Shown here: piece after piece, positions 796 to 35,529 of the stretch
How positions within the stretch are numbered: the stretch's first letter is position 1
How the letters are laid out: each line of letters starts with the position of its first letter
Virus record (IMG/VR): IMGVR_UViG_3300009414_002491
Location: 1 to 35,529 of that record
DNA from: a virus
Length of the DNA: 35,529 nt
Direction: 5' to 3' (one strand)
Translations under genes and position numbers: made by a program
The notes under the pieces: generated by a model
Seen by the model: only the letters and a program-made list of their open reading frames with translations
The model's database searches: none
Told to the model about the DNA's origin: nothing

Positions 796-915
796 AGGAC
801 AAGACAAGACGGGACCCGACAAGACAGGACTCGACACGACATGACAAGACAAGACGCGACATGACCCGACACGACATGACCCGACACGATATGACACGAC
901 AGGACCAGACTCGAC
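796..915 (+). repeat. NNGAC pentamer array 1 (24 units)
   Basis: Twenty-four consecutive 5-nt units NN-GAC run without an indel; only one unit (886-890, ending GAT) departs from GAC. The first two bases vary freely (AG, AA, GG, CC, TC, AC, AT, GC, CA). A local 15-bp higher-order repeat (AC-AT-CC) is visible near 866-895. The array ends directly at the leader and ribosome binding site of the zinc-ribbon gene that starts at 949. The period of 5 is not a codon multiple, so translation across it gives a meaningless 5-residue cycle; it is best treated as a DNA- or RNA-level element. Confidence 0.9.
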
Positions 916-2720: not shown

Positions 2721-2835
2721 CTGACAGGACCTGACGCGACGCGACGCGACAGGACCGGACGCGACATGACCCGACACGACGGGACACGACAGGACAAGAC
2801 TGGACTGGACACGACAAGACAGGACAAAACTCGAC
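2721..2835 (+). repeat. NNGAC pentamer array 5 (23 units)
   Basis: Twenty-three in-phase units; one (2826-2830) reads AAAAC instead of NNGAC. The array stops 6 bp before the terminator-like hairpin that precedes the first head gene. Confidence 0.9.
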
Positions 2836-6505: not shown

Positions 6506-7651
6506 ATGGCACGAGTTCTGATGTATGCAGGCCACGGCTTTCTGCCGATGGTCGCCTTTCAACGCGGCATTCGCACAGTTAGTACCCTTCCTCTTGTCCT
6601 TCGCGGCGCATCTACGTATGGAGCAAATGACTACGAATCATGCACCGTAGGCATCATGTTCGGCATGAAAGAGCCTCTTAATCGGATGCTCCCCGATCAA
6701 CGTGCACATGATACACACGTTCTTATTATAGATTTAGGATATCTGAAACGCGGAACAGTAGCAGAAGCACGACAAAACCCTGAAGAAGTGTATTGGTCTG
6801 TGAATCTTAATGGGCTAAACGGCTGGGGAGACCCGCCTCCCTCGCCTATGCCTTCTGACCGTTGGAAATCATTGGGTCTTTCTATGGCGAGATGGCAAGA
6901 TCCGACAGAGGGGCATTTCCTCGTGTGTGGCCAGAAACCACATGACGCTGCACTTGGTGGCGTACAGCCTGGTCAGTGGCTTGTCGAGACCGTATCTCGG
7001 CTACGAAGTCTGACAAACAAACAAATTGTTTGGCGGCCCCATCCAGATGACCATTCGAGTCGAAGATTACACATGGCCGCTGAGACAGGAGTGAGGCAGA
7101 GCAAGGGCAACCTACTTGCCGAAGATTTAAAGGGATGTGCGGGTTTGATTGCATATAATTCTAATTCTCTTGTCGAAGCTTTACTTGCTGGCGTGCCAAT
7201 TTATCCTCTTGGTCCAGGGTCAGTTTGCCCGACGATGGGCCATGCTGCTCTGACAGTAGAGACAATAAAGAATCCTCTCAGGCCGGAACGAAATCAGTTT
7301 TTTTACGACCTTGCATACCGTCAGTGGAATATCCCGGAATTAGAAGCCGGTTTGGCATGGTCTCATTTCTTTGATTCTAGTGGTATACTCAAATCTTCGG
7401 ATGCTTCGAGGACAGGTGGGGGTTTGATGTCCTCCTCCCCATCTCCGCGCCGGGGGGCAGCTCGACGCACGTCGAAGCAACCGTTCCCTGCTGTTTCCGC
7501 TCCATCACAGCAGGGTCTTTCTCCTGCTGCGCCACCATTCCTGCAGCAGGAGAACCTATCCCCTCCTGCTGCCACCCTTCAGCAGGAGGGGGATTTCCTT
7601 GACCCTGAAAATCTAGCGTCGTTAATCCATCCGGGAGAAGAGAAAAAGTAG
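6506..7651 (+). CDS. putative GT-B-fold glycosyltransferase (capsule/Kdo-transferase-like) with low-complexity tail
   Basis: A 381-residue protein. Residues 1-300 form the shared domain of a four-member family in this window: an N-terminal half with IIDLGYLKRG (about 74-83) and SVNLNG, a WRPHP motif (176-180), YNSNSLVEALLAGVP (217-231) and a C-terminal FFYDLAYRQWN...AGLAW (275-295). R-x-H/K-P followed by SN-x2-VEAL-x2-GVP resembles the nucleotide-sugar half of GT-B enzymes and capsule-synthesis proteins of the KpsC/KpsS type; the donor is unknown. Residues about 301-381 are Ser/Pro/Gln/Ala-rich, probably disordered, and encoded by three consecutive strong hairpins. GGGGAG precedes the ATG at 5 nt. 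This is the first gene of the cassette. Confidence 0.7.
   Translation: MARVLMYAGHGFLPMVAFQRGIRTVSTLPLVLRGASTYGANDYESCTVGIMFGMKEPLNRMLPDQRAHDTHVLIIDLGYLKRGTVAEARQNPEEVYWSVNLNGLNGWGDPPPSPMPSDRWKSLGLSMARWQDPTEGHFLVCGQKPHDAALGGVQPGQWLVETVSRLRSLTNKQIVWRPHPDDHSSRRLHMAAETGVRQSKGNLLAEDLKGCAGLIAYNSNSLVEALLAGVPIYPLGPGSVCPTMGHAALTVETIKNPLRPERNQFFYDLAYRQWNIPELEAGLAWSHFFDSSGILKSSDASRTGGGLMSSSPSPRRGAARRTSKQPFPAVSAPSQQGLSPAAPPFLQQENLSPPAATLQQEGDFLDPENLASLIHPGEEKK
7486..7591. repeat. three tandem CTGCTG/CAGCAG hairpins inside the 3' end of the GT gene
   Basis: Three inverted repeats lie end to end: CCCTGCTG (7486-7493) with CAGCAGGG (7508-7515); a perfect 12-bp stem at 7519-7530 with 7543-7554; and a perfect 12-bp stem at 7560-7571 with 7580-7591. 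All share the CTGCTG/CAGCAG core but differ outside it, so they are not simple copies. They are in frame and encode the low-complexity tail of the first glycosyltransferase, just before the next start codon. Confidence 0.8.
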
Positions 7652-7652
7652 C

Positions 7653-7892
7653 ATGCTCGGTGATTATATGGACGGCCGCTGGTGGCCGCATATTATGTAC
7701 TGGCTAGACTGGAACATCTCTACATATCGTGTGAGTTGGTTCGTGTGCGTGTTTGTGATGTATCTTCGTGCTTACTCCCCCTATTCTCAAGATTTCCCTT
7801 TTGATGTGACGGGCCTTGTCTTTGTTTTCTTTACGGGAACATGTCTCTGGATTGCTTACTGTGCCTTTTGGTATGGCTGGGGGGTAGGCTGA
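7653..7892 (+). CDS. small membrane protein (79 aa)
   Basis: A hydrophobic, aromatic-rich protein with two likely membrane segments, about residues 24-40 and 52-75 (the latter ending AYCAFWYGWGVG). It follows the preceding stop by one base, and its own stop overlaps the next start (TGATG). It is too short for a GtrA-type flippase. A role as membrane anchor or partner for the neighbouring transferases is inference; it was not recognised. Confidence 0.6.
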   Translation: MLGDYMDGRWWPHIMYWLDWNISTYRVSWFVCVFVMYLRAYSPYSQDFPFDVTGLVFVFFTGTCLWIAYCAFWYGWGVG

Positions 7893-33469: not shown

Positions 33470-33949
33470 ATGGCAGATCAATTTCCTGACCTCTTTAAAG
33501 GGTGGATGCGAGATACAAAGGATAGTCTCACACAGCTACAAAGGGATGTACAGGAAATTGGTGCTAAGCAACGGGTTATCGACTCAAAAATCACGGAGAT
33601 TAGCACCATTGTTTTGGGAAACGGGGACGCCCAAAAATCACATTTCGTACGTCTTCCCACCACGGAAAAAAGCCTTGTAGATATTCACACTCATGTAGAA
33701 AAACTCTCCTCATCAATCTTGTATCTGCGAGAGCAACTCGCGAGTTTACCGGAAGTTGATACCGCTGTTATTGCTGACCATGAGAGCCGATTGCGTACGA
33801 TCGAAAAGATGAGCTGGAAAGCAATGGGGCTTGTGATAGGCGTGTCCTTTTTAATGTCTTTGTTGATGCCTTCTCTCAGTAAAATTATAGTGGGACCTGG
33901 AGATGCCCCGCATAAGTCCCAGCAGCCTCATCTAAATCCAGATAAATAG
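33470..33949 (+). CDS. coiled-coil protein with C-terminal membrane segment, possibly XhlA/holin-associated
   Basis: A 159-residue protein. Residues 1-115 are helical and charged with hydrophobic heptads (SLTQLQRDVQEIG, VDIHTHVEKLSSSILYLREQLASL). Then KMSWKAMGLVIGVSFLMSLLMPSL (about 113-136) forms one membrane span, followed by a short Pro/Gly/His-rich tail. Coiled coil plus one terminal span is the layout of XhlA-type lysis-associated proteins, and the late position fits, but no endolysin is seen beside it. It runs convergently into the minus-strand genes with 9 nt between them. Confidence 0.55.
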   Translation: MADQFPDLFKGWMRDTKDSLTQLQRDVQEIGAKQRVIDSKITEISTIVLGNGDAQKSHFVRLPTTEKSLVDIHTHVEKLSSSILYLREQLASLPEVDTAVIADHESRLRTIEKMSWKAMGLVIGVSFLMSLLMPSLSKIIVGPGDAPHKSQQPHLNPDK

Positions 33950-33958
33950 CACGCATGT

Positions 33959-34252
33959 TCAGTGTGACTTTTTATCAGCTGGCGATGCCTCGTCCATTAG
34001 TGCATACAGTCTTCGCACCATTTCTGGTAGCCGCTCCAAGGATTCAGAGTAGAGTGTCACACGCTCAGGATGTAGGGCGGAGCAGAGTTTGTACTGCTCA
34101 AACGATGTTCTTTCGATCAGAATCAGATTCTTATTCCGGGCCTGCGCGGCTGCCTTTGTGGGCGGCGCAGATAGAAGAATGCGTACAGCCGTTCCGCAGA
34201 TATTGTCCCGATCGGCTTGTTGCTTCTCCTCTGTCATGTCTCGTTTTTCCAT
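33959..34252 (-). CDS. hypothetical small protein (97 aa), minus strand
   Basis: Starts MEKRDMTEEKQQADRDNI, 1 nt after the stop of the upstream minus-strand gene, so the two form an operon. An alternative start is at the second Met (34237). The middle (NKNLILIERTSFEQYKLCSALHPERVTLY) is an alpha/beta mix and the end is helical. It was not recognised. The reversed strand relative to the tail genes suggests a separate control unit. Confidence 0.5.
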   Translation of the reverse strand: MEKRDMTEEKQQADRDNICGTAVRILLSAPPTKAAAQARNKNLILIERTSFEQYKLCSALHPERVTLYSESLERLPEMVRRLYALMDEASPADKKSH

Positions 34253-34253
34253 T

Positions 34254-34553
34254 TTAGTCTCGTTTCTTTGCTAATTTTAAGTCGGGCTGTTGGGGTGGGT
34301 AGCACCGGGCATGCTCTAGCTCATACGCATACTCTAGTCCTTGCCGCGCCATGTGCAAATAACGGCACATGTCTACCTCGTAGCTAGGGAAGGCCGCTAC
34401 GAGGTCCTCCCACACATTAGGTGAACCTTTCCTCTCGGCCACCCATCTTGCTGAACGAGCCTCTTCAGGCAAGAGAGCAAGCATTTCACTCTGTATGTCT
34501 TTCACGTCGCCTAGTGCTTGGGCAATCTCCAGTAAACGATCGGCAGTTGGCAT
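34254..34553 (-). CDS. hypothetical helical protein (99 aa), minus strand
   Basis: ATG 34553 follows GGGGAAAG at 4 nt and gives MPTADRLLEIAQALGDVKDIQSEMLALLPEE, then WEDLVAAFPSYEVDMCRYLHMARQGLEYAYELEHARCYPP. The frame continues upstream into the 36-bp array, where it reads basic repeat residues; the internal start is preferred because of its ribosome binding site. It was not recognised. It is directly downstream, in its own reading direction, of the array. Confidence 0.55.
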   Translation of the reverse strand: MPTADRLLEIAQALGDVKDIQSEMLALLPEEARSARWVAERKGSPNVWEDLVAAFPSYEVDMCRYLHMARQGLEYAYELEHARCYPPQQPDLKLAKKRD

Positions 34554-34565
34554 AATACTTTCCCC

Positions 34566-35158
34566 GGGTTTCTTGAAGTGGCTGACACGCTTGAGGGTCC
34601 TGGTTTTCTTCCCTAACCTGGCACGCTTGGCAGATATGGTTTTCTTGCATCCTGTGACACGCTCTCTTTCCCTGGTTTTCTTGCATCCTGTGACACGCTC
34701 CCGATCCATGGTTTTCTTGTGTCCAATGACACGCTTAAACCTTGTGGTTTTCTTCCTCAGTGTGACACGCTTGACACGCTTGGGTTTCTTTCCTCTTGTG
34801 ACTCGTTAGCACGTCGTGGGTTTCTTATGTGGGGAGGCGCGTTTCGCCTTTTTGGATTTCTCGGTAGTCTTGGCACGCTCCTGGCCCCTGGCTGTCTCGG
34901 GTGAGTTGGCACGTTTGCAGGTATTGGGTTTCTCCTCCTGTGTGACACGCTAGTCCTTTGTGGTTTTCTTGCCAGGGGTGACACGTTTTCGCAATATGGG
35001 TTTCTTGAGGGGGATGACACGCTTGGCAATTGTGGGTTTCTCGCCTTCAATGACACGCTCCATCAATATGGGTTTCTTCTTCGTCGCGACACGCTAGCGC
35101 GTCGTGGGTTTCTTGTTGAGAGAGGCACGCTCACCCTGTTTGGTTTTCTTGCTTTCTC
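34566..35158. repeat. 36-bp-period array with two conserved boxes and two variable spacers
   Basis: Sixteen complete units and a partial seventeenth start at 34566 + 36n with no indel. Each unit is box A (10 bp, consensus GGKTTTCTTG), a 7-nt spacer, box B (9 bp, consensus TGRCACGCT) and a 10-nt spacer. The spacers are almost all unrelated; units 3 and 4 share the same 7-mer. Box A is lost or weak in units 9-10, and box B in unit 17. No single reading frame stays open through the array on either strand. The units are too short and split to be CRISPR repeats and spacers. It lies between two minus-strand genes. Confidence 0.95.
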
Positions 35159-35163
35159 TGGCA

Positions 35164-35514
35164 TCATGCCGCGTGTAAGGGCATGCTTAGCTTAGCGACA
35201 TAATAGGGTTGAGAGACGGGGAGTCCTTCGAGAGTCCGCCAAGCGACCCATAGGTCAAGGAGAAATATCTTGATCGCATACCGTGTGGCCATATTATGTC
35301 TATGGCCAGGGGTGACGTCTTTATACGTGGCGTGCTGTTCCATCCTGTGTTTGTAGTCATAGTATAGGTTTGCATACTTGTTCTGGGGAATCTTTCGTGC
35401 CTCTTCTAACATAGATTCAAGGTGTAGAGCCCAGGCCCCCGGTTCTTGTTTTTGTTCGTGCTCGACGGCAGATAGGATTTTTCGGGCGGTGGCTTTTGAA
35501 GTAGTCTTCCCCAT
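35164..35514 (-). CDS. hypothetical basic protein (116 aa), minus strand
   Basis: Starts MGKTTSKATARKILSAVEHE. It is helical, with aromatic-rich YANLYYDYKHRMEQHATYKD, a His-rich PGHRHNMATRYAIKIFLLDLWVAWRTLEGLP and SQPYYVAKLS. The HRHNMxxRYxxKIFLxDLWVAWRxLEGLPVSxPY segment looks conserved in type, but no family was recalled with confidence. The stop lies immediately beside the last unit of the 36-bp array. The upstream region is outside the window. Confidence 0.5.
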   Translation of the reverse strand: MGKTTSKATARKILSAVEHEQKQEPGAWALHLESMLEEARKIPQNKYANLYYDYKHRMEQHATYKDVTPGHRHNMATRYAIKIFLLDLWVAWRTLEGLPVSQPYYVAKLSMPLHAA

Positions 35515-35529
35515 AGTAGGCTCAAATGC

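What the first reader, a model, noticed from the sequence alone, without database searches (positions are those of the whole stretch)
34566..35158. Exact 36-bp array with two conserved boxes and two fixed-length, unrelated spacers
Boxes A (GGKTTTCTTG) and B (TGRCACGCT) recur in 16 full units at exactly 36 bp, with spacers of exactly 7 and 10 nt whose sequences are mostly unique. Strict conservation of spacing but not spacer sequence over about 600 bp means selection on geometry, as for a protein that binds two half-sites in a repeating frame or a DNA/RNA scaffold. It matches no standard CRISPR, iteron or simple tandem repeat. Stops interrupt all frames, although 36 is a multiple of 3, so an ancestral 12-residue coding repeat cannot be excluded.
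Basis: seen in the sequence. Interest (0 to 1): 0.88.

Follow-up and report, generated by a model that had tools for sequence, protein, structure and literature searches.

The report
Phage TIGR guide-RNA array with Tas
The 36-bp repeats are a TIGR array, a string of genes for small two-part guide RNAs that a Tas protein uses to find DNA; the system was described in 2025, and this is another phage copy of it, with its Tas gene cut off by the end of the contig.

Summary
The true geometry is 9-bp box, 9-nt spacer, 9-bp box, 9-nt spacer. It repeats 17 times with no indel (34565-35176) and is read from the minus strand: edge AGCGWGYCA, spacer A, loop AGAAAMCCA, spacer B. The same repeat family occurs in about 100 other IMG/VR loci of 32-63% GC. 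In 836 pooled units the boxes carry up to 1.9 bits per column and the spacers almost none. Stop codons occur about as often as column shuffles predict, so the array is not coding. One protein cluster lies beside the array in 74 of 97 loci, always on the array's transcribed strand. It matches the solved TasH and TasR structures (E 7e-37 and 3e-34), and a model of one member is a Nop domain without a nuclease (TasA type). The window holds only the last ~70 Tas residues plus an unrelated N-terminal stretch; the contig ends there. Two additional results: 597 tigRNAs from 21 records show no exact or 1-mismatch target in their own records, and orthologous arrays with 92-97% identical flanks swap whole units inside the array. 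Natural targets remain unknown. Verdict: new member of a known kind.

The parts
34565..35176 (-). TIGR array, 17 units of exactly 36 bp, read 5'->3' on the minus strand as edge AGCGWGYCA - spacer A (9 nt) - loop AGAAAMCCA - spacer B (9 nt)
   Evidence: same repeat family in about 100 IMG/VR loci
35159..35167 (-). first, 5'-degenerate edge repeat (ATGATGCCA) overlapping the TGA stop of the tas-like ORF
   Evidence: an overlap of 9-11 bp between tas end and array is found in 25 adjacencies
34548..34556 (-). last, degenerate edge repeat (ATTATGCCA) that contains the ATG (34553-34551) of the next minus-strand ORF
   Evidence: sequence
35164..35529 (-). tas-like ORF, open at the contig edge; about residues 52-116 are the C-terminal part of a Tas Nop domain, residues 1-50 resemble no Tas
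   Evidence: TasR 9mty E 4.5e-5, TasH 21kl E 4.7e-5; 52-58% identity of the best matches to the C-terminal residues of full-length Tas; PHROG 4285 'transposase', E 7e-12; pLDDT ~90 only for residues 51-110
34254..34553 (-). 99-aa ORF of unknown function directly after the array, presumably in the same transcript
   Evidence: no Pfam match; no minus-strand terminator-like site between

Best explanation
This is a TIGR-Tas locus of a tailed phage. The array is transcribed from the minus strand, downstream of a tas gene, as a long precursor. Tas would bind the box motifs of edge and loop repeats, and a host RNase would cut inside each edge repeat to give 17 tigRNAs of 36 nt. Each tigRNA carries two 9-nt guides; a Tas dimer would use spacer A to pair with one DNA strand and spacer B to pair with the other, opening about 18 bp of target without a PAM. 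The modelled relative and most of its aligned homologues have the nuclease-free TasA layout, so binding and bending of target DNA (a block, not a cut) is the more likely outcome. Shown here: array, geometry, repeat conservation, non-coding nature, conserved Tas neighbour, co-direction with tas, homology of Tas to solved Tas structures. Inferred from the published system: transcription, processing, targeting. Not known: whether the window's own Tas is full length, and what is targeted.
For: Array geometry. About 100 loci with the same boxes; 836 units with spacer columns at about 0 bits, apart from a weak preference at the first base of each spacer. One protein cluster in 74 of 97 loci, adjacent, and 94 of 94 array-tas adjacencies on the same transcribed strand. 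Profile of 33 of these proteins: TasH E 6.8e-37, TasR E 2.6e-34, IS621 3e-4. Model of L106 Tas: top Foldseek hits TasH 9w04 and TasR 9mty, E about 3e-9 and 4e-9. The window ORF itself matches TasR and TasH at E about 4.5e-5. [quoted passage not shown] The Tas search also recovers Salicola phage CGphi29, the published TasH phage.
Against: In the window only the last ~70 residues of Tas are recognisable and the ORF runs off the contig, so an intact effector is not shown. Box D reads AG here, not the UG of TasR arrays. No terminator follows the array. No target was found in own or related DNA. No RNA data.
Confidence: 0.95

Rival explanations
1. A decaying TIGR relic: the phage has lost most of tas (only a C-terminal remnant joined to other sequence is left), and the array is no longer used.
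For: Residues 1-50 of the ORF do not resemble Tas and fold with low confidence; several window units carry 2-3 box mismatches; L254 also has a broken tas.
Against: Box degeneracy of the window array is ordinary (rank 41 of 62 arrays); all 17 unit spacings are exact; the conserved C-terminal residues (GHRHNMA-RY-K-FL-DL-AWR-LEGLPV) are intact.
Confidence: 0.3
2. DNA-level array: a phage protein binds the two half-sites as double-stranded DNA, for example for segregation, replication or packaging.
For: Strict spacing and two fixed boxes per unit; ParB-like genes are reported beside some TIGR loci (PMC12045711).
Against: The constant neighbour is a Nop-domain RNA-binding protein of the Tas family; arrays are always co-directional with it (94 of 94), which dsDNA sites would not need; some relatives have 35/37-bp units.
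Confidence: 0.02
3. Degenerate protein-coding repeat of 12 residues (GFLxxx[DG]TLxxx in the plus frame).
For: 36 is a multiple of 3, and the plus frame GFL..DTL is open over long stretches in some loci (for example 0 stops against 3.6 expected in L014).
Against: Over 62 arrays all frames contain stops, mostly near the column-shuffle expectation; the best frame has 128 against 161. The third base of otherwise free NNT codons is conserved, and frameshifting unit lengths occur.
Confidence: 0.01

Closest known systems
TIGR-Tas dual-repeat systems (Faure et al. 2025, PMC12045711)
   Same: 36-bp units; two alternating short repeats; two 9-nt variable spacers; A-rich loop repeat and CCA box C; first edge repeat 5'-truncated; adjacent Nop-domain Tas gene; carried by a tailed phage
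   Different: box D is AG instead of the UG of TasR arrays; 17 units (published arrays most often 5-15); array runs into the next gene without a terminator; the window's Tas is incomplete
TasR and TasH nuclease effectors (PDB 9mty, 21kl and related entries)
   Same: the Tas proteins beside these arrays share the Nop-domain part at E 1e-34 to 1e-37 and the fold
   Different: most full-length relatives aligned (about 285 aa) lack the N-terminal RuvC or HNH part and look like TasA; L018 may be a TasH (untested)
IS110-family bridge-RNA recombinases (IS621, ISCro4)
   Same: related C-terminal RNA-binding domain (E 3e-4 and 4e-3) and two-part guide logic
   Different: no DEDD domain seen in the modelled relative, no transposon ends sought or seen, many guides per locus instead of one bridge RNA
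CRISPR arrays
   Same: repeats with variable spacers, guides presumably transcribed, fast spacer replacement
   Different: two alternating 9-bp repeats, 9-nt spacers, Nop-domain effector; units change inside the array

Membership tests
TIGR-Tas | two distinct alternating repeats of 8-12 nt separated by ~9-nt spacers | tested here: met
   9/9/9/9 geometry in 17 units and 836 pooled units
TIGR-Tas | Nop-domain Tas gene adjacent to the array | tested here: met
   74 of 97 loci; homologous to TasH and TasR. In the window itself only a C-terminal part, cut by the contig edge
[quoted passage not shown]
   ATGATGCCA at 35167-35159 on the minus strand
[quoted passage not shown]
   ends with a 5'-degenerate edge that overlaps the next start codon; no minus-strand terminator-like site in 33900-35529
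[quoted passage not shown]
   edge and loop share AG...YCA; box C fits CCA, box D is AG rather than UG
TIGR-Tas | processing to 36-nt tigRNAs | not testable with these tools
   needs RNA sequencing
TIGR-Tas | tandem-spacer DNA targeting | not testable with these tools
   target search in own and related DNA gave nothing above shuffled pairs, which neither supports nor refutes it
TasA (nuclease-free Tas) | Nop domain without RuvC or HNH part | tested here: inconclusive
   met for the modelled relative L106 (287 aa); unknown for the window, whose N-terminus is off the contig
CRISPR array | single repeat of ~25-40 nt with spacers of similar length | tested here: not met
   9-nt alternating repeats and 9-nt spacers
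coding tandem repeat | one open frame through the array | tested here: not met
   stops in all frames

The most novel reading that the evidence does not exclude
The window's effector may be a rebuilt Tas: a complete 116-aa protein (ATG at 35514) that keeps only the C-terminal RNA-binding helices of the Nop domain on a new N-terminus and still serves a 17-unit array, a Tas architecture not described in the main text of the published work.
Probability: 0.15. Interest if true: 0.5.

Novelty: new member of a known kind. Interest (0 to 1): 0.4.

Why it matters
TIGR-Tas is a recently found RNA-guided DNA-targeting family whose natural targets and means of spacer gain are open questions. This locus and its roughly 100 relatives with one shared repeat family give a data set for both. 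None of 597 tigRNAs hits its own record above chance, which argues against regulation of the phage's own genes. Orthologous arrays exchange whole units at interior positions while their flanks stay 92-97% identical, which does not look like gain at the leader end as in CRISPR.

Tried and rejected
Coding repeat (six-frame stop counts against column shuffles): rejected. CRISPR and iteron readings: rejected on geometry and on the neighbour gene. Rfam: no match. Phage DNA search with the locus: no match. Literature search by repeat sequence: nothing. Longer contigs across the window's right end: a 20-mer search found none, and the sister contigs L255-L259 show no array or Tas and do not reach this region. 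Targets of spacers in 2.7 Mb of related loci and in 21 own records under the tandem-spacer rule (A + 0-2 nt + reverse complement of B, derived by me from the published 8-nt 3' overhang) and under the alternative rule: nothing above shuffled pairs. ParB-like gene near the tas of L253: suspected by eye, no Pfam match, not claimed.

Full report
What is there. The window's last kilobase carries 17 units of exactly 36 bp on the plus strand from 34565 to 35176.

It is widespread. In bacterial and archaeal genomes nearly all hits are single chance matches; the clear exception is a 13-unit array on a Neomarinimicrobiota contig (L209). In 836 pooled units from runs of at least 8, most box columns carry 1 to 1.9 bits (a few variable ones less) and spacer columns almost none, apart from a weak preference at the first base of each spacer. 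Stop codons in the six frames are close to the numbers expected when columns are shuffled (596/625, 128/161, 316/307, 348/406, 505/569, 458/475), so the array is not coding. Some relatives have units of 35, 37 or 38 bp.

The constant neighbour. Clustering all ORFs of at least 80 aa around the arrays gave one cluster in 74 of 97 loci, the next largest being in 8. All 76 members lie on the strand opposite to the plus-strand reading of the boxes, and 94 of 94 array-gene adjacencies are co-directional when the array is read as AGCGWGYCA-N9-AGAAAMCCA-N9. In 25 adjacencies the array begins within the last 9-11 bp of the gene. A profile of 33 members finds four PDB sequences: TasH 6.8e-37, TasR 2.6e-34, and the bridge-RNA recombinases IS621 3e-4 and ISCro4 4e-3. 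The model of one member (L106, pLDDT 88.5) matches TasH 9w04 and TasR 9mty best (E 2.7e-9 and 4.0e-9). It has long N-terminal helices and the Nop C-terminal part but no nuclease domain: the TasA layout.

Identification. The TIGR-Tas paper (PMC12045711) defines arrays of two alternating 8-12-nt repeats with 9-nt spacers, processed to 36-nt tigRNAs, beside a Nop-domain Tas gene, mostly in phages. Every sequence-level feature tested fits, apart from a terminator after the array (not found) and box D (AG here, UG in TasR arrays). The A-rich AGAAAMCCA is taken as the loop repeat and AGCGWGYCA as the edge repeat (inference from the published description). On the minus strand the window array starts with a degenerate edge ATGATGCCA, which overlaps the stop codon of the upstream ORF, and ends with ATTATGCCA, which contains the start codon of the next ORF.

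The window's Tas. The ORF 35164-35529 (minus) is open at the contig end. Its C-terminal ~70 residues match Tas (52-58% identity in the best matches to full-length relatives; TasR and TasH at E about 4.5e-5; PHROG 4285) and keep the invariant residues. The ~50 residues before them resemble no Tas and are predicted with low confidence. No other Tas is found in the 35.5 kb. Sister contigs of the same phage (98-100% identical, L255-L259) do not reach this region, and no viral contig holds a 20-mer from near the window end. Whether the gene is full length beyond the edge, rebuilt or a remnant cannot be decided. The array's box degeneracy is ordinary among 62 arrays, which argues mildly against decay.

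Mechanism. By the published biochemistry (not tested here) each unit gives one tigRNA; [quoted passage not shown] From the reported 8-nt 3' overhang I derived the target as A + 0-2 nt + reverse complement of B. In 20 fully or mostly fetched array-bearing virus records plus the window, 597 tigRNAs have 0 targets with 0-1 mismatch in their own DNA outside arrays, and the 2- and 3-mismatch counts (10, 104) equal those of shuffled pairs (5-10, 89-103). A wider search in 2.7 Mb of related loci is also at control level. So the guides do not seem to address their own phage; hosts or rival elements are the likely targets, untested.

Spacer turnover. Orthologous arrays were compared. L041 and L106 (flanks 97% identical) share only 2 complete guide pairs plus several half-shared ones; L062 and L101 (92%) share 4 exactly and 4 more within one mismatch, in largely the same order, while the other units are unrelated (7-11 mismatches of 18); L038 and L126 differ by one inserted unit in the interior. 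Units are thus replaced or inserted whole and inside the array, not only at one end. These are few pairs from metagenome contigs and should be seen as a lead.

Verdict. A real feature, a member of a known kind.

Noticed in passing
window 798-887, 2437-2536, 2570-2689, 2723-2827 (+): Four arrays of 18-24 consecutive GACNN pentamers (GAC fixed, two free bases) in leaders before ORFs; two successive blocks share the tail GTGTTTATCACTCAGACAAGGAGGCTG and the last is followed by a terminator-like sequence before ORF 2890. Sister contigs L255, L256, L258, L259 have one more block; more distant relatives have none. Period-5 triplets recall TRAP-type RNA sites (from memory, untested).
   Followed up: partly
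L038/L126, L041/L106, L062/L101: Orthologous TIGR arrays exchange whole units in the interior while flanks stay 92-97% identical; relevant to the open question of spacer gain.
   Followed up: partly
L254 5486-6123 (+): A tas gene that appears broken: 181 aa of the N-terminal part run into unrelated sequence, with a separate C-terminal piece, beside a 5-unit array.
   Followed up: no
L209 (Neomarinimicrobiota contig JALUTR010000058.1), about 7382-7849: 13-unit array of the same repeat family on a bacterial contig, no Tas in the fetched part; possibly a provirus.
   Followed up: no
L148, L175, L192, L194, L200, L210 (Phycisphaerae MAG DeMMO2_9): Pattern hits within about 100 bases of the ends of several contigs of one MAG, as if a shared repeat broke the assembly.
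   Followed up: no
L018 6589-7494 (-): Tas relative with an HNH-like N-terminal stretch beside arrays of this repeat family, possibly a TasH; not tested.
   Followed up: no
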